The notes under the pieces were generated by a model, which was not told where the DNA came from, did not search any database, and was given only the letters and a program-made list of their open reading frames with translations. From Xanthomonas cassavae CFBP 4642 (GTDB lineage Bacteria > Pseudomonadota > Gammaproteobacteria > Xanthomonadales > Xanthomonadaceae), in contig NZ_CM002139.1 of NCBI RefSeq assembly GCF_000454545.1, positions 3,505,365 to 3,569,364 of the forward strand: a DNA stretch of 64,000 nt, written 5' to 3'. Positions 8,569 through 52,783 of this stretch are shown piece by piece (position 1 is the first letter of the stretch; the number at the start of each line of letters is the position of its first letter). The position numbers and the translations under genes are program-made.

Positions 8569-11500
8569 ATGAGCAAGCAATTTCGTCGCAACGTTCTCAA
8601 ACGCACCGCCCTCGCCGCCGTACTCGGCGCCTGCCTCAGCAATGGCGCGGTCTATGCACAGAGCACCACCGGCAGCATCTACGGTAGCGCTCCCTCTGAA
8701 GCCGGTAGCACCATCGTTGTGCAAAGCGACACAGGCCTCAGTCGCACCATCACTATTGATGCGAATGGCCGTTACAACCTTGGCTCGCTGCCAGTGGGCG
8801 CGTACACCGTCACCCTGAAGCGCGGTGACCAGGTCATCGATACCCGCAAGAATGTGCAGCTGCGCGTGGGTTCCGGCACCGAAGTCTCGTTTGCTGGTGC
8901 CAGCGCTGCAGGCAGCAACGCAGATGCGACCACGCTTGGTGCAATCACGGTCACCGCTGCCAACGCACCCAAGATCGATGTCAGCTCCACCAGTTCTCGC
9001 TCGGTGATCACCTCCGAGCAGTTGGCCACACTGCCGCTGGGCCGTAGCGCCGAAGCGATTGCGTTGCTGGCACCGGGCGCGGTGGCTGGCAGCGGCGCGT
9101 TCAATAACGGCTCGCGCTCGGTAGTGTCGTTCGGTGGCTCGGGCGTCACCGAAAATGCCTACTACATCAATGGCTTCAACGTCAGCAATCCGCTCAGCAA
9201 CCTGGGCGGCGTCAGCCTGCCCTACGGCGCCATCGACCAGCAGGAAACCTACACGGGTGGCTACAGCGCCAAGTACGGTCGCTCGACCGGCGGCGTGATC
9301 AATCAGCTCGGCAAGCGTGGCACCAACGAATGGCATTTTGGAGCTCAGGCGGTATGGGAACCAAAAAATCTTTCGAGTTCAGTTGGTGATGTCTGGTATC
9401 CGACCAATACGCTCAACGCCAACCCGCGTTACCGCTATGAAGATCCCGAGCTGCCAGGCACGATGTACCGCAGCAGCAAAGACGACGTGCAGAGCCGTAC
9501 CGTGTATAGCGCCTATGCAGGCGGCCCTCTGATTGAAGACAAGCTGTTTATCTTCGTGGCAGGCGAGACCGACAAGACCGATGGCGCAGTCACCAGCACA
9601 GCAACAGCCGCCAGTGCGCAGGGACGTAACCACTACGACTACAGCTCGCCGAAGTTCTATGGAAAGATCGACTGGAACATCAACGACAGCAACATCCTCG
9701 AGTACACGCGCATCGAGAACACCGATCGCCGTGCGGGCTCGTATAGCAACTACAACTACGACACCATGGCGGATGGCGGCCCATCCGGGCTGTATCCGGA
9801 CACCTACAAGATCAAAGATACCTACGATATCTTCAAATACACCGGTTACATCACCGATGACCTGACATTGAATGCGACGTGGGGAAGGAGCACGCAACAC
9901 AATCAGCAATTCAATCCGCTGATCTCCACGCTTCCGTTCATCGCGGGGCTGAACCTGCAGAATCCCGCAATCAACGGCGGCACACCGGTCTCCAACGATC
10001 AAGCCACGAACCGTTCGAAGGCCGATGACCCGATCAACAAGACTCGCAACCTGCGTCTGGAGTTGAATTATCGGCTTGGCGATCACGACTTGACCGCCGG
10101 CGTGGACAACATGTACTTCAATGCTTACGACGAGGGCGTTCGCACAACAGGTCCGGGCTACCAATGGATCTATAACCGCGCCGTCGACGAGGTCACGCCC
10201 GTTCGTGGATCACTAGGCGTCGGAGCAACTGGCGCGGGTACCAATGGTTACTATGCGCAGCAGCGCATCTTCACCACGACCACCAGCATGGCAGTGGAGC
10301 AGAAGGCGTACTATCTGGAAGATCGCTGGCAGGTCAACGACAACTGGTTGTTGACGCTTGGCATCCGCAATGACAAATTCACCAACTTCAACAGCGACCA
10401 TGTTGCCTACGTCGACAGCGGCGACCAATGGGCACCGCGCATCGGCGCCAGCTGGGATGTTTTCGGCGATTCCTCGTTGAAGGTTTTCGCCAATCTTGGC
10501 CGCTACTATCTCGCACTGCCCAACCAGGTGGCGATCCGCGGTGCGTCGGCGTCCACCTATACCGACGAATACTTCGCCTACACAGGTATCGATGCCAACG
10601 GCGAGCCAACCGGGTTGCGCCCCATCGGTCCTGGTCCGGTCTCGAGCAATGGCGAATACGGTCAGGCACCGGACCCGAATGCCTTCGCGCCGACGGATCT
10701 GAAGTCCCAATACCAGGATGAATTCATCCTCGGATTCGAAAAGACCCTTGGCGAAAGCTGGAACTCGGGCGCCAAGGTCACCTATCGCAAGCTTCAGGCT
10801 GCCATCGACGACGTCTGCGATACCGGCCGTATGGCCGACAAGATCGACGCCAGCGGTGGCGATTCCGGTTCGGTGGAGATTCCCGGGTGCGTGATGTTCA
10901 ACCCCGGCAAGACCAATACCTACAACCTGCCCAACTCGGATGGTTCCGGCTACACACAGGTCGCCATGTCGCAGTCGGATTGGGGTTTCACCGACAAGGC
11001 CAAGCGTAGCTATGTGTCAGTCGATTTGTTCTTGGAACATCCCTTCGACGAGAAGTGGTACGGCCGCATCGACTACACGTGGTCACACAGCTACGGCAAC
11101 ACCGAGGGCCAGGTGAAGTCCGACCTGGGCCAGGCCGACGTCTCGAAGACCCAGGACTGGGATGCAGCCGCGTTGATGTATTACGCCGGCGGCAGCCTGG
11201 CCAATGATCGTCGTCATCAGATCAAGGCGTTCGGGGCATATCAGATCAATCCGGAGTGGATGGCTTCTGCAACCCTGCGCGTCATGTCGGGCACGCCAAT
11301 TTCCTGCCTGGGTTTCTACGGCGGGCCGGATGCGGCGTCGGTTGACTACGATCCGATTGGCTACGGTTCGGGCTACCACTACTGTGGGGGCGAACCCTCG
11401 CCTCCTGGCGATGCCGGGCGTACCCCTTGGATCAAGAACCTGGACCTGGGTCTGACGTACCGTCCCTCGTTCGCCGATCACAAGCTGGCGCTGGGCGTGC

Positions 11501-11661
11501 AGGTGTTCAATGTCCTCAATGATCGCACTGTCAATCGTGTCGACGGGGTGTACGAAGGCGACTCTCCATTTGTGGTATCGAACACCTACCGAGTGGGTCT
11601 ACAGCCCTACAACTACAACGTGCCGCGCTACGTCCGCCTGACTGCATCGTACGATTTCTGA
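8569..11661 (+). CDS. Oar-like TonB-dependent receptor
   Basis: A 1030-residue outer-membrane protein. Its signal peptide (MSKQFRRNVLKRTALAAVLG...) is cleaved after VYA. A carboxypeptidase-regulatory-like beta domain follows (about 34-110, with NGRYNLGSLPVGAYTVTL). The plug domain (about 120-260) has ITVTAANAPKIDV, ENAYYINGFN and YGRSTGGVIN; the barrel ends in RLTASYDF, with the C-terminal Phe needed for assembly. This layout is the Oar class (named from Myxococcus), abundant in Xanthomonas and thought to import nutrients or peptides energised by TonB. AAAGG sits six bases upstream of the ATG. It is about 60% alike by eye to the receptor at 49676-52783. The substrate is unknown. Confidence 0.93.
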   Translation: MSKQFRRNVLKRTALAAVLGACLSNGAVYAQSTTGSIYGSAPSEAGSTIVVQSDTGLSRTITIDANGRYNLGSLPVGAYTVTLKRGDQVIDTRKNVQLRVGSGTEVSFAGASAAGSNADATTLGAITVTAANAPKIDVSSTSSRSVITSEQLATLPLGRSAEAIALLAPGAVAGSGAFNNGSRSVVSFGGSGVTENAYYINGFNVSNPLSNLGGVSLPYGAIDQQETYTGGYSAKYGRSTGGVINQLGKRGTNEWHFGAQAVWEPKNLSSSVGDVWYPTNTLNANPRYRYEDPELPGTMYRSSKDDVQSRTVYSAYAGGPLIEDKLFIFVAGETDKTDGAVTSTATAASAQGRNHYDYSSPKFYGKIDWNINDSNILEYTRIENTDRRAGSYSNYNYDTMADGGPSGLYPDTYKIKDTYDIFKYTGYITDDLTLNATWGRSTQHNQQFNPLISTLPFIAGLNLQNPAINGGTPVSNDQATNRSKADDPINKTRNLRLELNYRLGDHDLTAGVDNMYFNAYDEGVRTTGPGYQWIYNRAVDEVTPVRGSLGVGATGAGTNGYYAQQRIFTTTTSMAVEQKAYYLEDRWQVNDNWLLTLGIRNDKFTNFNSDHVAYVDSGDQWAPRIGASWDVFGDSSLKVFANLGRYYLALPNQVAIRGASASTYTDEYFAYTGIDANGEPTGLRPIGPGPVSSNGEYGQAPDPNAFAPTDLKSQYQDEFILGFEKTLGESWNSGAKVTYRKLQAAIDDVCDTGRMADKIDASGGDSGSVEIPGCVMFNPGKTNTYNLPNSDGSGYTQVAMSQSDWGFTDKAKRSYVSVDLFLEHPFDEKWYGRIDYTWSHSYGNTEGQVKSDLGQADVSKTQDWDAAALMYYAGGSLANDRRHQIKAFGAYQINPEWMASATLRVMSGTPISCLGFYGGPDAASVDYDPIGYGSGYHYCGGEPSPPGDAGRTPWIKNLDLGLTYRPSFADHKLALGVQVFNVLNDRTVNRVDGVYEGDSPFVVSNTYRVGLQPYNYNVPRYVRLTASYDF

Positions 11662-13655: not shown

Positions 13656-15779
13656 GTGATTCGCACACCTCATCTATTGACGCTGACCCTGGCCGTGGCC
13701 GCCGCGCTGAGCGGTTGCAAGAAGTCCGACGACACGGCGCCTGCCGCCCCGGCGGGCGGCGCCGCGGCGACCACCCCGGCGACCCCCAAGACGCTGACCC
13801 TGGACCAGAACACGCTGCCGGCGGTGAACCGCTTCACCGCGGCCGACCTGGACGCCAACGGCAATGCCTGTACCGACCTGAACGCCTACGCCAATGCCAA
13901 GTTCCTGGCCGCCAACCCGGTGCCGGGCGACCGCACCAGCTGGGGGGCATTCGAGATGCTCGACGAGCGCTCCAATGCGATCCAGCAGCAGCTGGCCGAA
14001 CAGGCGGCCGCCGACACCGGCGCCACCGGCGTGGAGAAGATCGTCGGCGACCTGTGGTCGACCGGCATGGACGAAGCCAAGATCAATGCCCAGGGCATCG
14101 AACCGCTGAAGCCGGAACTCGCTGCCATCGATGCGATCAGCGACCAGGCCAAGCTGGTCGATTACCTGCGCAGCAGCGCCGCCAAGGGCAACAACGATCT
14201 GTTCGGCTTCGGTGCGGAGGCGGACTTCAAGAAGTCCAGCCAGAACATCGCCTATGCCATGCAGGGCGGCCTGGGCCTGCCCGATCCGGAGTACTACACC
14301 AGCGCCGGCAACAAGGCCAAGCTCGAGGCCTACCAGGCGCATATCGCCAAGGTGCTGGAGCTGTCGGGCGTGTCCGCCGCCGACGCCGCAGCGCAGGCCA
14401 AGCAAGTGGTCGCGTTCGAAACCCGCCTGGCCAAGGTGTCCAAGACCAGCACCGAGCTGTCGCGCGACGCCGCGCTGGCCTACAACCCGATCTCCCCCGC
14501 CGATGCCGACAAGCTGACCCCGAACTGGTCCTGGACCGAGTTCTTCAAGTCGCAGGGCGTGGCCACGCCGGAGATGTTCTCGCTGGCGATCCCCGCCTTC
14601 CACCAGGAAGTGAGCAAGATGATCGCCGATACCGATCCGGCGATCTGGCGCGCCTACCTGCGCTTCCACACCGTCGACGGCGCCTCGCCGTTCCTGAGCC
14701 AGCCGTTCGTCGACGAGAACTTCGCGTTCTACAACAAGACCATGCGCGGGCAGAAGGAGATCAAGCCGCGCTGGAAGCGCGTGCTGGCCACCATCAACGG
14801 GCAGGCCGGCGAGACGCTGGGCCAGATGTACGTCAAGGTCGCCTTCCCGGCCGACTCCAAGGCCAAGATGGAAACCCTGGTCACTAACCTGCGTACCGCG
14901 CTCAAGGCCCGCATCGAGAAGCTGGACTGGATGAGCCCGGAGACCAAGACCAAGGCCATTGCGAAGTGGGAAAGCTTCGTGCCCAAGATCGGCTACCCGG
15001 AAAAGTGGCGCGAGTGGAACGGCCTGACCACCAGCCGCGACAGCTACCTGGGCAACGTGCAGGCCGCGCAGGAATTCAACTACAAGTGGAACCTGTCCAA
15101 GATCGGCAAGCCGGTGGACAGGACCGAATGGGGCATGAGCCCGCAGACGGTCAACGCGTACTACAACCCGCTGCAGAACGAGATCGTGTTTCCGGCCGCG
15201 ATCCTGCAGCCGCCGTTCTTCGACCCGAATGCACCGGAAGAAATGAACTATGGCGGCATCGGTGCGGTGATCGGCCATGAAATGACGCACGGCTACGATG
15301 ACCAGGGCAGCCGTTTCGGTGCCGATGGCAACTTCATCCCCGATCCGGGTTGGTGGACGCAGAAGGACCTGGACGCGTTCAAGGCGCGCACCGGCAAGCT
15401 GGTGGCGCAGTTCGACGGCTACCGTACCCCGGCCGGCGACAAGGTCAAGGGCGACCTGACCCTGGGCGAGAACATCGCCGACCTGGGCGGCCTCAACACC
15501 GCCTACGACGCGATGAAGACCGCCACCGCCGGCAAGGACGATCCCAAGACCGACGGCATCACCCGCGACCAGCGCTTCTTCCTCAACTGGGCCACGGTGT
15601 GGCGCCGCAACTTCACCCCGGAAGAGCTGGTGGTGCGCCTGAAGACCGATCCGCATGCGCCGGCCAACTTCCGCGCCATCGGCGCGCCGTCGAACATGCC
15701 GGCCTTTGCCGCCGCGTTCTCGTGCAAGGCAGGTGATGCGATGGTGCGCCAGGGCGATCAGCAGGTCGTGATCTGGTAA
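13656..15779 (+). CDS. M13 family zinc metallopeptidase (lipoprotein), copy 1
   Basis: A 707-residue neprilysin-like M13 endopeptidase. The GTG at 13656 is preferred over the in-frame GTG at 13596: GGAG lies five bases upstream, and it places a lipoprotein signal (LTLTLAVAAALSGCKK, lipid-modified Cys) at the N terminus. The protein is therefore predicted to be anchored in the periplasm or outer membrane. The catalytic parts are complete: substrate-binding NAY (TVNAYYNP), zinc motif HEMTH at 541-545, the third ligand in ENIADLGG (Glu605) and its partner Asp609, and the C-terminal VVIW. It probably cleaves short peptides. It is the first of three tandem paralogues and has its own terminator. 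Confidence 0.95.
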   Translation: MIRTPHLLTLTLAVAAALSGCKKSDDTAPAAPAGGAAATTPATPKTLTLDQNTLPAVNRFTAADLDANGNACTDLNAYANAKFLAANPVPGDRTSWGAFEMLDERSNAIQQQLAEQAAADTGATGVEKIVGDLWSTGMDEAKINAQGIEPLKPELAAIDAISDQAKLVDYLRSSAAKGNNDLFGFGAEADFKKSSQNIAYAMQGGLGLPDPEYYTSAGNKAKLEAYQAHIAKVLELSGVSAADAAAQAKQVVAFETRLAKVSKTSTELSRDAALAYNPISPADADKLTPNWSWTEFFKSQGVATPEMFSLAIPAFHQEVSKMIADTDPAIWRAYLRFHTVDGASPFLSQPFVDENFAFYNKTMRGQKEIKPRWKRVLATINGQAGETLGQMYVKVAFPADSKAKMETLVTNLRTALKARIEKLDWMSPETKTKAIAKWESFVPKIGYPEKWREWNGLTTSRDSYLGNVQAAQEFNYKWNLSKIGKPVDRTEWGMSPQTVNAYYNPLQNEIVFPAAILQPPFFDPNAPEEMNYGGIGAVIGHEMTHGYDDQGSRFGADGNFIPDPGWWTQKDLDAFKARTGKLVAQFDGYRTPAGDKVKGDLTLGENIADLGGLNTAYDAMKTATAGKDDPKTDGITRDQRFFLNWATVWRRNFTPEELVVRLKTDPHAPANFRAIGAPSNMPAFAAAFSCKAGDAMVRQGDQQVVIW

Positions 15780-15801
15780 TTGCGCATTGCAGTAGATCAG
15801 G

Positions 15802-15834
15802 CGGGCGGCGATCGAAAGATCGTCGCCCGTTTTT
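15802..15834 (+). terminator. Terminator of M13 copy 1
   Basis: A 12-bp stem, CGGGCGGCGATC / GATCGTCGCCCG (one G-T pair), with loop GAAA is followed by TTTTTG. It begins 22 bases after the stop codon. Confidence 0.9.
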
Positions 15835-16084
15835 GTCGGGATTCCTTGGATCTTTCTGCATGCTTGACAGGTAAATCACGCTGGCCGGCCATGTTCGTTT
15901 TCTCTCACAACGATTCAACCAACGCTGCAGGCATCAAACGCCGCACGCGCGGCACACTGCACGCCACTGGGACTGCATGCATCACGGTATCGGCACACAA
16001 GCCTCAACGAAGCTCACTGCGTGCGCAGGCAAGGTCGCGCCCGCTTATGCTCAGGATTCCTGCCCGTCACTGCAGCTGACGTTC
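15835..16084 (+). other. Leader region of M13 copy 2
   Basis: About 250 bases between the terminator of copy 1 and the ATG of copy 2. The reading frame of copy 2 is open upstream to 15977, but that extension has no lipoprotein-like sequence and is treated as leader. A TTGACA hexamer lies near 15863, without a clear -10 box. Confidence 0.3.
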
Positions 16085-18183
16085 ATGCCATTGCTCAAGG
16101 CTTCCACGCTGGCCTTTGTCCTGGTTGTGGCCCTGACAGGCTGCAAACGCAACGCCGAGGACACCGGCACGCAGGCAAACACCTCACCCCAGACACCTGC
16201 GGCTGCCCCTGCTACTCCGGCAACGCCTGCGTTCGACATCAGCGAACTCGGCCCAGCAGCCAGCGCCTGCCAGAACCTCGACGAATTCGTCAACGGCAAA
16301 TGGGCAAACACCAATCCGATTCCGCCCGATCGCACCAGTTGGGGCGTGGACGAAATCCTGACCGAAAAAAGCATGGCCATTCAGCGCAACATTGTTGAAA
16401 CGGCCGCACAGCCGGGCAAAGCTGCAAATTCGCTGGAGCAAAAAATCGGAACGCTCTATGCCGCCGGCATGGACGAAGCTGCCATCGAAGCGGCAGGCGC
16501 CCAGCCGATCCAGCCACAACTGGACACCATTGCCGCGTTGAAGTCAGGCAAGGATGTCGCCAGTTACATCGTCAGCCGTCATGGCGAAGGCGATGGACAG
16601 GTGTTCGGATTCGGTGCGGGCGCAGACTTCCACCATGCCGACATGCAGATCGCGTTTACCCAGGAAGGCGGCCTGGGCCTCCCAACCAAGGACTACTACA
16701 CCGACGCCGAGCACGCGTCCATCCGCGCCGCCTATCTGGCCTACACCGCCAGGTCGTTCGAACTCACCGGCAGTTCTGCCGACGTGGCCGAGACGCAGGC
16801 AAACGATGTGCTGGCACTCGAAACACGTCTGGCTGCCGCGTCGATGGAGCCAGTGGAGGCTCGTGAGCCGAAAAACCAGTATCGCCTGGTCAGTCTCGCC
16901 GAGGCGGACAAGCTCACGCCGCACTTTCCGTGGAAAGACTTCTTCGCCACCCAGGGTGTGGAGGTCGGCAAAGGCTTCTCGCTGGCGCAGCCGCGCTTTT
17001 TCGCTGCGTTCGATCATGAACTGGCCACTGCGCCGATTGCACAGTGGCAGGCTTACCTTCGCTTCCATGCGATTGATGAGGCAGCTGCGCAGCTCAGCAA
17101 GGCATTCGTCGACAATCGCTTTGCCTTCTACGGCAAGACGCTGTCCGGGCAGCCCGAACAACAGCCGCGCTGGAAGCGCGTCCTTCGTGCGGTTAGCGGA
17201 GCCATGGGCGAAGGCCTGGGCCAACTGTACGTCGCCAAGGTCTTCACGCCCGACACCAAGCGACGTGCCGCAGAATTGGTGGACAACATCCGCGCCGCAC
17301 TCAAGACACGGATCGAGCACGTCGACTGGATGAGCGAGCAAACCAAGGCCAAGGCCTTGGCAAAGTGGTGAACCTTCCTGCCCAAAATCGGTTACCGGAC
17401 ACGTGGCGCGACTGGTCCGGGCTGGAAATCGTGCCTGGCGCGTATTACTGCAACCTGCAGGCCGCGGCAAAGTTCAACCATCACTACGACATTGCGCAGA
17501 TCGGCAAACCCACCGATCGCAAGCGCTGGACAATGACGCCGCAGACGGTCAACGCGTACTACAGCCCCCAGACGAACACCATCAATTTCCCGGCCGCAAT
17601 CCTGCAGCCGCCATTCTTCGATCCCAACGCGGATGACGCGCTGAACTACGGTGCGATCGGCGCGGTCATCGGCCATGAGGCTTCGCATGGTTTCGACGAT
17701 CATGGCAGTCAATTCGATGGCGCAGGCAACAATGTCAATTGGTGGACCCCGCAGGATCGCAACGCCTTCGAAGCGCGCACCGATTTGCTGGTCAAGCAAT
17801 TCGATGCCTATGTGCCGCTGCCGAACCATCCAACCCTGCACGTCAACGGCAAGCTCACCCTGGGCGAAAACATCGCCGATCTGGGCGGCATCAACATTGC
17901 CTATGACGCATTGCAAACCGCATTGCGCACGCATCCCGAACGCGCACAGGCGATCGATGGCTACCGCCCGGAACAACGGTTTTTCCTGGGCTTTGCACGG
18001 AGCTGGCGCGAGCAGATCCGCGAGCAGCAGCAGTTGGTCTATCTGGCTTCCGACCCCCATTCGCCCTCCAACCTGCGGGCCATCGCCTCTCCCTCCAACA
18101 TGCCGCAATTCGCCCAGGCGTTCTCCTGCACGGCAGGCGATGCGATGGTGCGCCCGGACAAGGACCGCGTGGTGATCTGGTAA
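16085..18183 (+). pseudogene. M13 family metallopeptidase copy 2, nonsense plus frameshift
   Basis: A second neprilysin-like lipoprotein gene (MPLLKASTLAFVLVVALTGCKR), similar throughout to copy 1. It breaks in the middle. Codon 17369-17371 is TGA where copy 1 has Glu (KWESF). About 25 bases on, GGTTACCGGACACG lacks one C relative to the expected GGT-TAC-CCG-GAC-ACG, shifting the frame by -1. The remainder (TWRDWSGL...) continues in the new frame to 18183. The catalytic half beyond the break is intact in sequence: NAYYSP, HEASH, ENIADLGG and a C-terminal VVIW. Two lesions within about 30 bases make a single sequencing error unlikely. The predicted product is the N-terminal 428 residues, without the zinc site. 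Confidence 0.9.
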
Positions 18184-18217
18184 GCGGCTGCAAGCGCTTC
18201 CAATCCGATGACACCGT

Positions 18218-18241
18218 ACAGGCCCGCACTCGCGGGCCTGT
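18218..18241 (+). terminator. Hairpin after M13 copy 2
   Basis: A perfect 10-bp stem, ACAGGCCCGC / GCGGGCCTGT, with a 4-base loop lies 35 bases after the stop. There is no T-run, so its termination strength is uncertain. Confidence 0.6.
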
Positions 18242-18352
18242 CGCGTTCATGCAAACGGCCGTTGCCGATGACGAACGGCAGCGGGCGCCTGTCTGCACGG
18301 CCCCCGGCCTTGCTAAACTCCGCCGACTTTACTCTGGCCACTCTTCTTCTCG

Positions 18353-20365
18353 ATGCCCACCATTCGCCCGCTTGCCCTCGCTCTCGGCTTCAGCCTGATC
18401 TCGCTGCTGTCCGCCCCCGACGCCGACGCCGCTCGCAAGAAGAAGGCCGCCCCCAAGGCCCCGGCCGTGTCGGCCGCCTGCACCGACTTCTACAACGACG
18501 CCAATGCCGGCTGGCTCAAGGCCAATCCGGTGCCGCAGGCCGGCGCCGTCACCGCGCTGGGGCAGTTGTCCGAGCGCGCCCTGCAACAGCAGCGCGAATT
18601 GCTCGACGCATCGATGAAGACACCGCAAGGCAATGTGCAGAAGCTGCTCGGCGACTTCTGGGCCAGCGGTCTGGACGAAGCTGCCGTCGAAAAGGACGGT
18701 TCCAACCCCATCGCCCCCTTGCTGTCGCGCATCGACGCGATCAAGAAGGCCAAGGATGTGCCCGCTTCCATCGCAGCACTGCATCAGGTCGGCATCCCGG
18801 TCGGCTTCAACTTCGGCCCGGACGTGGATCTGAAGGCGCTGGACCGCCATATCGGTTATTTCATGCAGGGTGGCATGGGCCTGCCCGACCCGGCGTTCTA
18901 CACCCGCACCGACGCCGACACCCAGGCGCTGATGGGCCGCTACCGCGCCTACGTCAAGCAGATCCTGGCGCTGACCGGCACCCCGGCCGACAGGCTCGAC
19001 GCCGACGCCGCCTCCGTGCTGCAGATCGAGACCGCGCTGGCACGCAGCGCGCAGTCAGTGCAGGGCATCAACAACCCGTTCAACAACTACGCCCCGATCG
19101 CCACCAAGGAGCTGACCAAGCAGTACAAGAATCTGCGCCTGGCCGACTTCCTGGAAGCACAGGGCGTCAAGGACGACCTGGTGTCGATGGCCGACCCGGC
19201 CATGTTCAAGCAGCTCGACAGCATGATCGTCAGCATCAGGCCGGACCAGTGGAAGGCCTATCTGCGCTGGCGCGTGGGCGATGCGATGGCGCCGTACCTG
19301 TCCAAGAGCTTCCACGATGCCGAGTACCAGTTCCGCGGCCGTCTGCTGCGTGGCGATGCGCTGCCGCCGCAGCGCTGGCAGCAGGTGCTGGACGCGATCA
19401 ATATCGCCGCCGGCCCGATGCTCGGCCGCGAATACGTGGCGCGTTACCTGAGCAGCGACACGCGCCGCCAGGCCGAAGCCATCGCCGACCAGGTGCGCGA
19501 CGCGCAGCTGGCCGCGCTGGAGCGCACCGGCTGGGGCAACGGTGAGGTGATCGCCGAAGCCAAGGCCAAGCTGGCGGCGATGAAGATCGAGGTCGGCGCG
19601 CCGCGTCGCGATCTGGATTACACCGTGCAGCCGATGGGCCGCGGCAGTTTCGGCGGCAACATGCTGATCGCCTCGACCTGGCGTCACCGCGAGGAAATGA
19701 AGCGCATCGGCAAGGGCAACGCCGACCGTCGTTGGGACGTGCTGCCGCAGCAGCCCGCCGTGGCCTACGACATCGCGCAGAACCGCCTGATCGTCACCGC
19801 TGCGGTCCTGCAGGCGCCGGTGCTGAGCGCCAGCAGCACACCGGCCGCGCAGTACGGCGCTTACGGCGCGCTGGTCGCCCACGAAATGACCCGTGCCATC
19901 GACGCCAAGGGCTCGCTGGTGGATGCCAAGGGCGAGTTGCGCAGCTGGTGGACGCCGGCCGAGAAGACCAGCTGGACCGTGCTGACCGACAAGGTGGCCA
20001 GCCAGTTTGGTGCCTACCCGTACCCGGGCGTGCCCAATGTCAAGGTCAACGGTGCACAGACCGCCGAAGAAAACCTGGCCGACCTGGCCGGTGTCGAACT
20101 GGCCTGGCAGGCCTTCAGCAAGGCACAGCCAGCGGCCACCGAGGCCGACAAGCAGGCGTTCTTCACTGCCTGGGCCGGCTTGTGGGCCCAGCAGCTATCG
20201 CCGAACGAAGCGGTGCAGCGTGCCAGCGCCGACATCCGCGCGCCCGGCCAGTGGCGCACCAACGGTCTGCTGTCCAACCTGCCGGAATTCGGTGCGGCCT
20301 TCAGCTGCAAGGCCGGCCAGCCGATGCAGCGTGTGGACGCGGACCAGATCAAGATCTGGCGCTGA
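18353..20365 (+). CDS. M13 family peptidase homologue copy 3, degenerate active site
   Basis: A 670-residue paralogue of the two upstream peptidases with an uninterrupted frame and a classical signal peptide (cleavage near ADAAR) rather than a lipobox. The overall M13 fold is clear (FYNDANAGWLKANPVP, YFMQGGMGLPDP, AFSCKAGQPM, and IKIWR at the end). Key catalytic positions are changed. The zinc motif reads HEMTR (510-514), so the second zinc His is Arg514, and the substrate-binding NAY reads VAY. The ENLADLAG segment keeps Glu573 and Asp577. With one zinc ligand and the substrate Asn lost, it is predicted not to work as a normal peptidase. It may bind peptides or help the intact paralogue. An inactive paralogue kept in frame suggests selection. 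Confidence 0.9.
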   Translation: MPTIRPLALALGFSLISLLSAPDADAARKKKAAPKAPAVSAACTDFYNDANAGWLKANPVPQAGAVTALGQLSERALQQQRELLDASMKTPQGNVQKLLGDFWASGLDEAAVEKDGSNPIAPLLSRIDAIKKAKDVPASIAALHQVGIPVGFNFGPDVDLKALDRHIGYFMQGGMGLPDPAFYTRTDADTQALMGRYRAYVKQILALTGTPADRLDADAASVLQIETALARSAQSVQGINNPFNNYAPIATKELTKQYKNLRLADFLEAQGVKDDLVSMADPAMFKQLDSMIVSIRPDQWKAYLRWRVGDAMAPYLSKSFHDAEYQFRGRLLRGDALPPQRWQQVLDAINIAAGPMLGREYVARYLSSDTRRQAEAIADQVRDAQLAALERTGWGNGEVIAEAKAKLAAMKIEVGAPRRDLDYTVQPMGRGSFGGNMLIASTWRHREEMKRIGKGNADRRWDVLPQQPAVAYDIAQNRLIVTAAVLQAPVLSASSTPAAQYGAYGALVAHEMTRAIDAKGSLVDAKGELRSWWTPAEKTSWTVLTDKVASQFGAYPYPGVPNVKVNGAQTAEENLADLAGVELAWQAFSKAQPAATEADKQAFFTAWAGLWAQQLSPNEAVQRASADIRAPGQWRTNGLLSNLPEFGAAFSCKAGQPMQRVDADQIKIWR

Positions 20366-20650: not shown

Positions 20651-21340
20651 TCAACGCACTACGCGCAGCGGCGGCTTGCGTCCCTTGCGGCCACCCCTGC
20701 CACCACCGAACGGCGGCTGGCCACGCCAATAGCGGATCATCAACCAGCCGAACAGCATGCCGCCCAGATGCGCAAAATGCGCCACGCCCGGCTGCCAGCC
20801 GGTTGCGCCCAGGAACAATTCGATCGCACCGAACACGATGACGAACGTACGCGCCTTCATCGGGATAGGAGGGAACAGCAGCATCACGCGCTGATTGGGG
20901 AATAGCATGCCGTAGGCCAGCAGCAGACCGAACACACCACCGGATGCGCCGACCACCGGCGCACCGCTCTGGGTAAACCAGGCCATCAGCAACTGGCACA
21001 CACCGGCGCCGGCCACGCTCACCAGGTAATAGGTCAGAAAGCGCTTCTGGCCCCAGGTCTGCTCCAGCGGCGCACCGAACATGAAAAGCGCCAGCATGTT
21101 GAAGAACAGATGATTGAAGCCACCATGCAGAAAGGCGTAGGTCAGCAACTGCCATGGCATGAAACTGGCGCCCGGCGAGAACGCATCGAAGCCGTTGGAC
21201 AGCGGCCACAGCATCAGCCATGACAGGACGCTATCGGATGGCAGCACGCCGGCACCCAGGTCGCCCACCGCCCATTGCAGCAGGAACAAGCCGATGTTGG
21301 CGATCAATAATGCTTTGGTGACGGGCGGCAATTGAGGCAT
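20651..21340 (-). CDS. Rhomboid family intramembrane serine protease
   Basis: A 229-residue inner-membrane protein with six predicted helices. It shows the rhomboid hallmarks: HGGFNHLFFNM (His77, Asn81) in helix 2, the serine motif GASGG with Ser133, and the catalytic AHLGG with His191 in the last helix. Rhomboids cleave membrane-spanning substrates within the bilayer; no substrate is known here. The tail is very basic and Gly-rich (GGGRGGRKGRKPP). I chose ATG 21340; the longer open frame upstream is antisense-like Arg/Cys-rich sequence overlapping the neighbouring gene. The REP-like block lies immediately downstream. Confidence 0.92.
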   Translation of the reverse strand: MPQLPPVTKALLIANIGLFLLQWAVGDLGAGVLPSDSVLSWLMLWPLSNGFDAFSPGASFMPWQLLTYAFLHGGFNHLFFNMLALFMFGAPLEQTWGQKRFLTYYLVSVAGAGVCQLLMAWFTQSGAPVVGASGGVFGLLLAYGMLFPNQRVMLLFPPIPMKARTFVIVFGAIELFLGATGWQPGVAHFAHLGGMLFGWLMIRYWRGQPPFGGGRGGRKGRKPPLRVVR

Positions 21341-21380
21341 GGCGGCATCCTTCGGAATGCTGCCCATGATAATGGCAGGC

Positions 21381-21767
21381 TTATGAAGGTCCCCACACGG
21401 CCGCATCCAACCGCTGCGCGGCCGTGGCACGTCGCACGCGCCCCTGCACCACCGGCACGCCTTCGGCACGCAGGCGCCGGCATTGCTCGTCGTAGGCGGA
21501 CGAGTCAGGCGCAAAGGCGATCCGGCCATCGCTACGCAGCACACGGTGCCACGGCAGCTGCGGGTCATCGTTGCCGCTGAGCACACGCGCCACCAGCCGC
21601 GCACGGCCCGGCAGGCCGGCGCGCTGGGCGACTTCCCCGTAACCGGCGACCTCGCCCGCCGGAATCGCGTGGATCACCTCGAAGATGCGCAGCCGCGCCC
21701 GCTCGCCGGACAGTGCCTCCCCCTTGGAGGCGACCCGCCTGGCAGGGCTGGCAGGTGGAAGCGGCAT
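21381..21767 (-). CDS. Alkyltransferase-like protein (ATL, MGMT family)
   Basis: A 129-residue protein covering only the C-terminal DNA-binding part of O6-methylguanine-DNA methyltransferase. The active-site PCHR is replaced by PWHR with Trp73, which defines ATL proteins: they bind O6-alkylguanine without removing the alkyl group and hand the lesion to nucleotide excision repair. Other landmarks are IPAGEVAGYGEVA (36-48) and GRARLVARVLSGN, with the arginine finger. The start is uncertain: ATG 21767 (MPLPPA) or ATG 21788 (MSTSRRS). It lies 40 bases from the rhomboid gene on the same strand and may share a transcript. Confidence 0.9.
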   Translation of the reverse strand: MPLPPASPARRVASKGEALSGERARLRIFEVIHAIPAGEVAGYGEVAQRAGLPGRARLVARVLSGNDDPQLPWHRVLRSDGRIAFAPDSSAYDEQCRRLRAEGVPVVQGRVRRATAAQRLDAAVWGPS

Positions 21768-21881
21768 TGAACGGCGAGATGTCGACATCGCGCAAGCATG
21801 CCAGCTGACGGGCATGGGTGTGCGCATCAAAGCCTTCCAAGCGAAGGGAAGTGACAAGCCTCGCAAAGGAAAACTACGAGC

Positions 21882-49601: not shown

Positions 49602-49675
49602 GAGCGCTACCTCTCTCTAGCATCGGTTGTCAGCGCACCGTCACATTCGTGATGGCGCTCATCTGGAGAGAGATG

Positions 49676-52600
49676 ATGACCGCCCGCCTTGTTTCGCCCC
49701 CCCCTGTCCGCCGGCCATCGCATGCACGCCTGTGCCGCATCAGCGTGCTGGCGCTTGCACTGAGTGGTGCCGTGGGCATCCTGGCCACGGGAACTGCCGC
49801 TGCGCAAAGCACCACTGCCGGCATTTACGGCAGTGTGCCGGCAGGCAGTGGTGCCACCGTTACCGCGCAGAGCGATACCGGCTTTACCCGTTCCGCAACC
49901 GTCGACGGCAGTGGCCGCTACGCGATCGGCAATCTCCCGGTAGGCACCTACACCGTCACCCTGCAACGCGAAGGCCAGGCTGCAGAGACGCGACGTAATA
50001 TCGCCCTGCGCGTCGGTGCCGGCATCGATGTGTCCTTCGGCAGCAGCGATGGGTCCGGCGATACCGCCACCCTGGGCACCATCACGGTAACTGGCAAGAA
50101 CATTTCGCCGGTGGACGTCTCTGCCACGGCCTCGCGTACCGTGATCACCGCCGAACAATTGCAGCGCTTGCCGCTGGCGCGTTCGGGCGAGGCCATCGCG
50201 CTGTTGTCGCCCGGTGCCGTGCAAGGCAGCGGCTATTTCGGAAATGCGATTTCGTTCGGCGGCGCCGGCGTCACCGAGAACGCCTATTACCTCAACGGCT
50301 ACCTCAGCTCCAACCCGCTCTCCAATATCGGGGGCGTGACCCTTCCATTCGGCGCCATCGATCAGCAGGAAACCTACACCGGCGGCTACAGCGCGCGTTA
50401 CGGCCGCTCGGCAGGCGGCGTGCTCAGCCAGGTCGGCAAGCGCGGCACCAACCAATGGCATTTCGGTGCGCAGGTCTTGTGGCGTCCGAAGTCGCTATCC
50501 AGCGAGGATAAAAATGTCTTCTATCCCGATACCGCCCCTCCTTCCGGCTACGAATACAGCGATGAAAGCCTGCCCGGCACTCTTTACCGTAGCCGAAAGG
50601 ACGACACCTTCTGGAATACGGTCTACAGCGTTTATGGCGGCGGCCCGCTGATCGAAGATCGCCTGTTCGTGTTCGTTGCCGCAGAGCAGGAACGCAGCGA
50701 AGGCGTGTCCACCGCTCGCCGGGACGACCCGGTGATCGGCCGCAACAGCTATCGCACCGATGAGCCGAAGGTCTACGCCAAGATCGACTGGAACATCAAC
50801 GACAGCAACATCCTCGAACTGACCGGCGTCAAGAACAATTCGCGCGATAGCGGTGTTTATAGCGACTTCAACGGCTATGCGGGTGTCAACGGCGACGCCA
50901 ACGGCGCATTCGCCGATACGGTCAAGGTCAACGACCGCTATTACATCGGCAAGTACACCAGCTACATCACCGATGACCTGACCCTGAGCGCCACCTATGG
51001 CAAGAGCCGCCAGACCGACTTCCGCAACAACCCCAGCACGGCGCCGCTGCTGAGCAATACCAATCTGCAGGATCCGGCCATTACCGGTGGCAGCGAGATC
51101 CGCAACAACCAGACGTCCAGCCAGGCGCGCGATGGCGAAAACACCACGCGTGGCCTGCGCATCGACCTGGAATACGTGCTCGGCAGCCACACCCTCGCCG
51201 CAGGCGTGGACAACATGTATTTCAACGCCAACAACGAAGGCGTCATCACCACCGGCCCCGGCTTCGGCTGGGTCTACGGCCGCTCTTCGCGCCCCACCTC
51301 GCCCATCAGTGCTGCGCTGGGCGTGGGCCCGGCAGGTGGCAACGGTTACTACGCGTATCGCTCGGTATTCAATACGGCAACCAGCATGTCGGTCGAACAG
51401 AAAGCCTACTTCCTCGAAGACAAGTGGCAGGTCAACGACAAACTGCTGCTGACGCTGGGTATTCGCAACGACAAGTTCACCAACTTCAACGACGCAGGTG
51501 AGCCTTACGTGACCAGTGGCGACCAGTGGGCGCCGCGCCTGGGACTGAGCTGGGACGTCTTCGGCGATTCGTCACTCAAGGTGTATGGCAACGCCGGTCG
51601 CTACTACCTGGCACTGCCCAATAGCGTGGCGATCCGCGGGGCATCGCCGTCCACGTTTACACGCGAATACTTCACCTACACCGGCATCGATGCGCAGGGC
51701 AGCCCGACCGGGCTGACGCCGGTCGCAGTCGATCCCTCCGCCGGATTCTCCTGCTCGGGCAATATCGTCTCGTCCAACCTGGAGTGCGGTCAGGCGCCGG
51801 ATGCGGCCGGTATCGCCGCATCCGATCTCAAGTCGATGTACCAGGACGAATTCATGCTTGGCTTCGACAAGACGCTGGGCGAAAGCTGGGTGACGGGCGC
51901 CAAGGCTACCTATCGCACGTTGGGCGCCACCATCGACGACGTCTGCGACGCCGACCGGATGCGCACCAAGTTGACTGCAATCGGCGTGGATCCCAGCACC
52001 GTCAACGTGCCCGGCTGCATCATCTTCAATCCAGGCGAAACAAACTCTTTCAGCCTGGCCAACCTGGACGGTTCCGGCCGCACCTCGGTCTCGATGTCGC
52101 CGTCGGACTGGGGCTTCGACAAAAAGGCCAAGCGAACCTATCTGGCAGTGGATCTTTTCCTGCAGCACCCCTTCGATGGCAAATGGGAAGGCCGCATCGA
52201 CTACACCTGGTCGCGCAACTTCGGCAATACCGAAGGTCAGGTCAAGTCCGATATTGGCCAGGCCGATGTGTCCAAGACACAGGATTGGGATGCGGCGGCA
52301 TTGATGTGGTATTCGGGCGGCTACCTGGCCAACGATCGCCGGCACCAGATCAAGATCTACGGCTCCTACCAGATCGCACCGGAATGGCTGATCGCAGGCA
52401 ATATCCGCGTGCTGTCCGGTACGCCGAAGTCCTGCCTGGGCTATGTCAGCATCAACGGCATCAGCGAAGATTCCGATGCCGGCGATCCGGTGGGCTATGG
52501 CTCGTCGTACCACACCTGCAACGGCCAACCATCGCGTCCCGGCGATGCAGGGCGCCTGCCCTGGACCAAGATTGTGGACCTCGGCCTGACCTACCGCCCG

Positions 52601-52783
52601 GCCTTTGCGGACAACAAGCTCGCCATGACCCTTCAGGCGTTCAATATCTTCAACGAGCGCAAGCCGTTGCAGGTCGACTCCACCTGGGAAGACGACACTT
52701 TTACGCTGTCCAACACCTATGACATCGGCCGGTACTTCACCCAACCGCGCTATGCCATGTTCTCGGTGTCGTACGACTACTGA
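49676..52783 (+). CDS. Oar-like TonB-dependent receptor
   Basis: A 1035-residue outer-membrane receptor, paralogue of the one at 8569-11661. Start choice: ATG 49676 lies five bases after TGGAGAG; ATG 49673 is the alternative. The signal peptide ends near TAAAQS. The carboxypeptidase-regulatory-like domain has GRYAIGNLPVGTYTVTL, the TonB box region ITVTGKNISPVDV, the plug YGRSAGGVLSQVGKRG, and the barrel ends in FSVSYDY with an aromatic C terminus. It probably imports a TonB-energised substrate, which is not recognisable. A TonB-family gene follows 450 bases downstream on the same strand and may be its dedicated energiser. Confidence 0.93.
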   Translation: MTARLVSPPPVRRPSHARLCRISVLALALSGAVGILATGTAAAQSTTAGIYGSVPAGSGATVTAQSDTGFTRSATVDGSGRYAIGNLPVGTYTVTLQREGQAAETRRNIALRVGAGIDVSFGSSDGSGDTATLGTITVTGKNISPVDVSATASRTVITAEQLQRLPLARSGEAIALLSPGAVQGSGYFGNAISFGGAGVTENAYYLNGYLSSNPLSNIGGVTLPFGAIDQQETYTGGYSARYGRSAGGVLSQVGKRGTNQWHFGAQVLWRPKSLSSEDKNVFYPDTAPPSGYEYSDESLPGTLYRSRKDDTFWNTVYSVYGGGPLIEDRLFVFVAAEQERSEGVSTARRDDPVIGRNSYRTDEPKVYAKIDWNINDSNILELTGVKNNSRDSGVYSDFNGYAGVNGDANGAFADTVKVNDRYYIGKYTSYITDDLTLSATYGKSRQTDFRNNPSTAPLLSNTNLQDPAITGGSEIRNNQTSSQARDGENTTRGLRIDLEYVLGSHTLAAGVDNMYFNANNEGVITTGPGFGWVYGRSSRPTSPISAALGVGPAGGNGYYAYRSVFNTATSMSVEQKAYFLEDKWQVNDKLLLTLGIRNDKFTNFNDAGEPYVTSGDQWAPRLGLSWDVFGDSSLKVYGNAGRYYLALPNSVAIRGASPSTFTREYFTYTGIDAQGSPTGLTPVAVDPSAGFSCSGNIVSSNLECGQAPDAAGIAASDLKSMYQDEFMLGFDKTLGESWVTGAKATYRTLGATIDDVCDADRMRTKLTAIGVDPSTVNVPGCIIFNPGETNSFSLANLDGSGRTSVSMSPSDWGFDKKAKRTYLAVDLFLQHPFDGKWEGRIDYTWSRNFGNTEGQVKSDIGQADVSKTQDWDAAALMWYSGGYLANDRRHQIKIYGSYQIAPEWLIAGNIRVLSGTPKSCLGYVSINGISEDSDAGDPVGYGSSYHTCNGQPSRPGDAGRLPWTKIVDLGLTYRPAFADNKLAMTLQAFNIFNERKPLQVDSTWEDDTFTLSNTYDIGRYFTQPRYAMFSVSYDY

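What the first reader, a model, noticed from the sequence alone, without database searches (positions are those of the whole stretch)
13656..20365. Three tandem M13 peptidases, the third with a broken zinc site but an intact gene
Three paralogous neprilysin-like genes stand in a row. Copy 1 has all catalytic motifs (HEMTH, NAY, ENIADLGG). Copy 3 is fully open over 670 codons, yet the zinc motif reads HEMTR (Arg514 for the second zinc His) and NAY reads VAY, while Glu573/Asp577 remain. A pseudo-enzyme kept in frame beside an active paralogue suggests a new role such as peptide binding, chaperoning or control of copy 1. Copy 3 also has a cleavable signal instead of a lipobox, so it would be soluble.
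Basis: partly seen in the sequence, partly recalled or inferred. Interest (0 to 1): 0.75.

Follow-up and report, generated by a model that had tools for sequence, protein, structure and literature searches.

The report
Ancient zinc-less peptidase look-alike family
The third of three neighbouring peptidase genes in a Xanthomonas genome belongs to an old family of look-alike proteins, kept across much of a bacterial family, that have lost parts of the cutting site again and again yet stay under strong selection, so they probably do something other than cut peptides.

Summary
Copy 2 is not a working gene: a stop and a frame change split it.

The broken site is not recent. Copy 3 is in 35/35 genomes of the genus and 154/198 sampled from the family. 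The substrate-anchoring Asn is lost in 111/111 aligned orthologues, 80/80 named loci and 222/222 database relatives (overlapping sets); zinc ligands were then lost many times. Asp650 and Arg717 are nearly always kept. dN/dS is 0.08-0.09, as in active copy 1, but selection has moved: around HExxH 0.017 in copy 1 and 0.102 in copy 3; elsewhere 0.098 and 0.076.

It is a selected, lineage-wide bacterial M13 pseudopeptidase, soluble by its signal, usually encoded just downstream of an active-type M13 gene. My best mechanism is a non-catalytic partner of that peptidase (0.4); an independent peptide binder is the main rival. M13 pseudopeptidases are known in Drosophila; my searches listed none in bacteria. 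Partnership, zinc content and activity were not testable here.

The parts
13656..15779 (+). copy 1: active-type M13 lipoprotein peptidase (707 aa, HEMTH, NAYY, ENIADLGG)
   Evidence: all ten checked site residues intact in 56 of 56 aligned relatives
15977..17371 (+). copy 2, first piece (M13_N domain), ends at an in-frame TGA
17365..18183 (+). copy 2, second piece in another frame (M13 catalytic domain, HEASH, NAYY, ENIADLGG)
18353..20365 (+). copy 3: M13 pseudopeptidase, 670 aa
18353..18430 (+). signal peptide of copy 3 (about 26 aa, judged by eye, no lipobox)
   Evidence: sequence; 1 of 112 copy-3 rows has a lipobox-like match before Cys43
18623..18862 (+). residues 91-170: more conserved in copy-3 orthologues than in copy-1 relatives
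19607..19762 (+). residues 419-470: block hardly varying in copy-3 orthologues, up to the NAY position; only 431-450 is more conserved than in copy-1 relatives
19757..19765 (+). A469-V470-A471 in place of Asn-Ala-Tyr (neprilysin 542-544)
19880..19894 (+). H510-E-M-T-R514 in place of HExxH
20069..20083 (+). E573-N-L-A-D577 (ENxxD kept)
20183..20185 (+). W611, counterpart of neprilysin Trp693 (S1' pocket, recalled), Trp in 87 of 87 thinned rows
20237..20239 (+). R629 in place of neprilysin His711
20255..20257 (+). R635, counterpart of neprilysin Arg717, Arg in 111 of 111

Best explanation
Copy 3 is an ancient, selected, non-catalytic M13 pseudopeptidase, exported and soluble by its signal (probably periplasmic). 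Shown by sequence: the Asn-Ala pair that anchors the substrate backbone is lost throughout the group, on the tree in one step; zinc ligands were then lost repeatedly; the predicted fold, the Cys pair, the S1' Trp, Asp650 and Arg717 are kept; constraint is relaxed at the zinc site and tighter than in copy 1 in other stretches (91-190 and 431-450). Inferred: it no longer cuts peptides but keeps the M13 chamber and binds something; most likely it works as an accessory partner of the active M13 lipoprotein encoded just upstream, holding peptides for it or tuning it, in the way inactive M16B subunits work with active ones. My odds: selected pseudopeptidase 0.93; partner of an active M13 peptidase 0.4 (the figure given below as confidence).
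Against: Six of 60 loci have no M13 gene in the roughly 6.5 kb fetched upstream, while copy 3 stays near the rhomboid gene in five of the six, so adjacency is not obligatory. Copy 3 is open where copy 1 is interrupted (G022). Rate covariation of copies 1 and 3 is only suggestive (partial r 0.545 against 0.26-0.27 with a short control gene, 42 loci). 21 of 111 orthologues keep a complete zinc triad and catalytic Glu and could retain some activity. Over the whole protein copy-3 rows are less conserved than copy-1 rows (mean 0.71 against 0.78), with only 8 of 32 20-residue windows higher and one tied. Copy 1 is a lipoprotein and copy 3 is not, so co-location is assumed. No complex could be modelled.
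Confidence: 0.4

Rival explanations
1. Independent peptide binder: copy 3 captures peptides in the M13 chamber (Arg717 and the S1' Trp kept) and shields or delivers them, without needing copy 1, as proposed for Drosophila Nepl15.
For: Arg717 and Asp650 kept 111/111, Trp693 counterpart 87/87; the same Arg and Asp are present in Nepl15 (PMC7822871, passages); six loci without an M13 gene in the fetched upstream stretch.
Against: The Asn-Ala backbone anchor is lost in all rows and four other S1' positions have mostly changed. Most loci keep an active-type M13 next door.
Confidence: 0.27
2. Scaffold or chaperone unrelated to peptides: the conserved stretches 91-190 and 431-450 form a binding face for another envelope protein.
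For: These stretches are more conserved in copy 3 than in copy 1, while the catalytic region is relaxed.
Against: The active-site Asp650 and Arg717 stay invariant, which a distant surface would not need; they may however be structural. The stretches could not be mapped in 3D.
Confidence: 0.18
3. Still a peptidase, weak or with an altered metal site.
For: Glu584 is kept in 102/111, the zinc triad plus Glu584 in 21/111; His510 and Glu573 remain in the window's copy.
Against: In PepS, mutants of the catalytic Glu, the zinc Glu, the two Asp and the Arg lost activity completely and the mutant of the His711 counterpart kept little (PMC4701951, passages). In this genus the second zinc His and the anchor Asn-Ala are gone together, with His711 in most.
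Confidence: 0.08
4. Gene in neutral decay.
For: Site residues differ between lineages; G027 matches only residues 1-607 and G045 has its counterpart in two ORFs.
Against: dN/dS 0.08-0.09 over 34-35 genomes, presence in 35/35 genomes, full length in 34, many invariant columns over 80 rows.
Confidence: 0.02

Closest known systems
Active bacterial M13 peptidases (PepO, Zmp1, PepS)
   Same: Same two Pfam domains and fold; ENxxD, Arg717, Asp650 and the Cys pair kept
   Different: HExxH, the NAY anchor and His711 lost in the window's copy
Drosophila Neprilysin-like (Nepl) proteins, e.g. Nepl15 and Gone early
   Same: M13 paralogues lacking catalytic residues, almost all predicted secreted; Nepl15 also has Arg at zinc-ligand positions and keeps Arg717 and Asp650
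   Different: Insect proteins with their own losses; common origin of the two groups was not tested; copy 3 is bacterial and usually sits beside an active-type paralogue
Bacterial M16B active/inactive heterodimers (SPH2681/SPH2682, TTHA1264/TTHA1265)
   Same: Two paired proteins of one peptidase family, one without the zinc motif
   Different: Another peptidase family and fold; heterodimer shown there, only inferred here
H-gal-GP complex of Haemonchus (6row)
   Same: Several M13 subunits in one assembly
   Different: The word inactive does not occur in the main text; no pseudo-subunit was seen in the passages

Membership tests
M13 peptidase family (Pfam PF05649 and PF01431) | both domains above curated cut-offs | tested here: met
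   274.9 and 141.9 bits against cut-offs 32 and 24.5
M13 peptidase family (Pfam PF05649 and PF01431) | M13 fold | tested here: met
catalytically active M13 peptidase | HExxH | tested here: not met
   HEMTR in the window; no HExxH at the site in 52 of 52 loci; deeper orthologues differ: second His kept in 38 of 111
catalytically active M13 peptidase | NAY/VNAxx substrate motif | tested here: not met
   A-V-A; Asn lost in 111 of 111 orthologues
catalytically active M13 peptidase | ENxxD | tested here: met
   E573-N-L-A-D577
catalytically active M13 peptidase | zinc content and hydrolysis | not testable with these tools
   needs purified protein
M13 pseudopeptidases of the Nepl type | conserved loss of catalytic residues across orthologues with the fold kept | tested here: met
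M13 pseudopeptidases of the Nepl type | common origin with insect Nepl | not tested
   no insect sequence was put in a tree
active/inactive heteromeric peptidase (M16B-like arrangement) | gene of an active-type paralogue adjacent | tested here: met
   54 of 60 picked loci; six without
active/inactive heteromeric peptidase (M16B-like arrangement) | physical complex needed for activity | not testable with these tools
   no complex prediction or assay available

The most novel reading that the evidence does not exclude
Xanthomonadaceae evolved a two-component M13 system: an anchored active peptidase and a soluble zinc-less sister subunit that binds and presents or withholds peptides, a bacterial neprilysin counterpart of the M16 active/inactive pairs. 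Once its substrate anchor was lost, its zinc site was free to erode separately in many genera.
Probability: 0.3. Interest if true: 0.75.

Novelty: new variant of a known kind. Interest (0 to 1): 0.6.

Why it matters
Where sources name these proteins they call them M13 metallopeptidases, endopeptidases or neprilysin, although the substrate anchor is lost in all 222 listed and the zinc triad plus catalytic Glu is complete in only 18. The group shows an ordered history of how an enzyme becomes a pseudoenzyme (anchor first, then zinc ligands many times, two residues almost never), with possible intermediates still alive (L288, L188). It offers a bacterial setting in which the question of what pseudopeptidases do can be tested by gene deletion and biochemistry.

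Tried and rejected
A recent inactivating mutation in this one genome: rejected, since 52 of 52 loci and 80 of 80 loci lack HExxH at the site. Neutral decay: rejected by dN/dS. A copy-3 clade outside the family: the order search (250 genomes) gave matches at the copy-3 level (over 900 bits) only in family f1 and in one MAG of another family (G275); among the 20 loci fetched, the M13 genes from other families typed by patterns show HExxH and a NA motif where the patterns caught them (L202 gave no NAY hit and L192 holds one partial ORF without HExxH), except the G275 one.

Tried with little result: the codon-model run for copy 3 timed out, so only copies 1 and 2 have ML values (0.042 and 0.111, read from the logs) and copy 3 rests on NG86 counts; the promoter/terminator scan found nothing above shuffles; the rate covariation test is weak because its control gene is short; no model coordinates were available, so the conserved stretches could not be mapped in 3D, and part of 411-460 has lower model confidence (10-residue block means 76, 63, 89, 80, 59); two Xanthomonas secretome/vesicle papers (passages) named no M13 protein. 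An Arg-for-zinc idea (Arg514 bridging Glu573) is not supported as a rule: with Arg at that site Glu646 is kept in 27 and lost in 12, with His kept in 22 and lost in 16, with other residues 9 and 1 (87 thinned rows). Long branches make the place of the divergent rows unsure. Whether unrelated M13 pseudopeptidases exist in other bacteria was not searched for.
Full report
What is there. The window lies in a 5.27 Mb genome; copy 3's closest listed database relative is labelled Xanthomonas arboricola (98%). The genome holds five M13 loci, three of them here. Copy 1 is an active-type lipoprotein. Copy 2 is split by an in-frame TGA at 17369-17371 and a following change of frame. Copy 3 is open, with a signal-like start, HEMTR, A-V-A at the NAY position and Arg for His711. 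Neprilysin residue numbers are transferred by motif; Asn542, Glu584, Glu646, His711, Arg717 and Asp650 are named in papers I saw in passages (one of them numbers the Asp 651), the others are recalled.

Copy 3 is the steadiest of the three. It is in 35 of 35 genomes of the genus, at 89-97% identity in the others, full length in 34 (G027 matches only residues 1-607). In the arrays of the 34 other genomes copy 2 is missing in five (L142-L146) and present as an open ORF of 680 aa or more in 29, two of which have two such ORFs (L148, L149; one ORF, in G029, was flagged with one stop inside its match). Copy 1 is interrupted in G022 (L126) and ends early in G008 (L141), both flagged; it is not on the fetched stretch in three (L147, L150, L151).

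The loss is old and ordered. In the family sample 154 of 198 genomes and 39 of 54 genera have an orthologue at E 1e-150. Of 111 aligned orthologues (51 from the first loci, 60 of the other 124 matches, picked to cover genera), all have lost the Asn and the Ala of NAY, 73 the second zinc His, 18 the first, 29 the zinc Glu; Asp650 and Arg717 are intact in 111, and all ten checked residues are intact in 56 of 56 copy-1 relatives. In 222 database relatives (the best 120 of each of two searches, merged) the Asn is lost in 222, Asp650 and Arg717 are kept in 221 each, and 18 keep the zinc triad plus Glu584. In 20 of the 44 family genomes without a strong hit, nine hold a more diverged copy in one ORF, all nine without the Asn and with Asp650 and Arg717; G045 has its copy in two ORFs; L288 (G069) keeps every motif and L188 (G073) keeps NAY but has HExxR and no zinc Glu; in the other eight no such copy was seen among the fetched loci. 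In the wider tree the Asn changes once, Asp650 and Arg717 never, H583, H587 and E646 9, 9 and 11 times, and L288 with L188 branch between the pseudo group and the active genes (support 99; long branches make details unsure). Two steps are thus readable: anchor loss once, zinc-site loss many times.

Selection. NG86 dN/dS in the genus: copy 1 0.096 (31 sequences), copy 2 0.148 (31), copy 3 0.088 (35); on 25 genomes common to all three 0.091, 0.146, 0.089. Without L140: 0.090, 0.147, 0.079; within 30 codons of HExxH 0.017, 0.070, 0.102; elsewhere 0.098, 0.156, 0.076. Across genera (87 copy-3 against 56 copy-1 rows) the HExxH segment is relaxed in copy 3, while windows from 91 to 190 and 431-450 are tighter than in copy 1; 411-430 and 451-470 are equal. 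Overall copy 3 is the less conserved (0.71 against 0.78) and only 8 of 32 windows are higher. The codon data and this shift together are my main sign of a changed role.

Neighbourhood. An upstream M13 gene with intact HExxH lies on the same strand in 54 of 60 picked loci, 48 of them within about 500 bp (gaps estimated from ORF ends). The rhomboid gene that converges on copy 3 in the window is found in the fetched stretch of 69 of 80 named and 49 of 60 deeper loci. All 12 genomes checked, including the six without an adjacent M13, hold at least one other M13 by Pfam; their sites were not read. Covariation of rates between copies 1 and 3 exceeds that with the rhomboid control (42 loci), but the control is short.

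Known or new. Seen in passages: the review of inactive metallopeptidases names only Drosophila Gone early for M13 (PMC11266112); 21 Drosophila Nepl proteins are predicted inactive (PMC8223033); Nepl15 is proposed to sequester peptides and keeps Arg717 and Asp650 counterparts (PMC7822871); Bland 2008 notes invertebrate non-peptidases (PMC2259306); M16B pairs are reviewed in PMC12731061. Searches listed no description of a bacterial M13 pseudopeptidase; these are capped lists from a library that lacks most subscription journals.

Mechanism. Shown: loss pattern, selection, predicted fold, gene order. Inferred: no catalysis, periplasmic location, binding. I judge a partner role with the active M13 lipoprotein most likely (0.4), then an independent peptide binder (0.27). 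On rechecking I narrowed the second tighter stretch from 419-470 to 431-450 and set the confidence field to the 0.4 already stated for the partner role.

Noticed in passing
15977-18183: Copy 2 is split by a stop and a frame change; 29 of 34 other genomes of the genus have an open copy of it in the array and five lack it there.
   Followed up: partly
L288 and L188 (G069, G073): Possible living intermediates: one near-relative of the pseudo group with all motifs intact, one with NAY kept but HExxR.
   Followed up: partly
L148, L149: Four-gene M13 arrays with copy 2 doubled in two genomes of the genus.
   Followed up: no
L126 (G022), L141 (G008): The active-type copy 1 is interrupted or ends early in two genomes in which copy 3 is open.
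   Followed up: no
20651-21866: Rhomboid and O6-methylguanine methyltransferase genes on the opposite strand downstream of copy 3; the rhomboid is in the fetched stretch of 69 of 80 named and 49 of 60 deeper loci.
   Followed up: partly
L195 (G275) and L251: Copy-3 orthologues in a MAG of another family and in a record titled Bacillus subtilis; contamination, mislabelling or transfer.
   Followed up: no
8569-11661 and 49649-52783: Two TonB-dependent receptor-like proteins with a carboxypeptidase-regulatory-like domain and an outer membrane barrel.
   Followed up: no
L318 (G045): Copy-3 counterpart lies in two ORFs of different frames.
   Followed up: no
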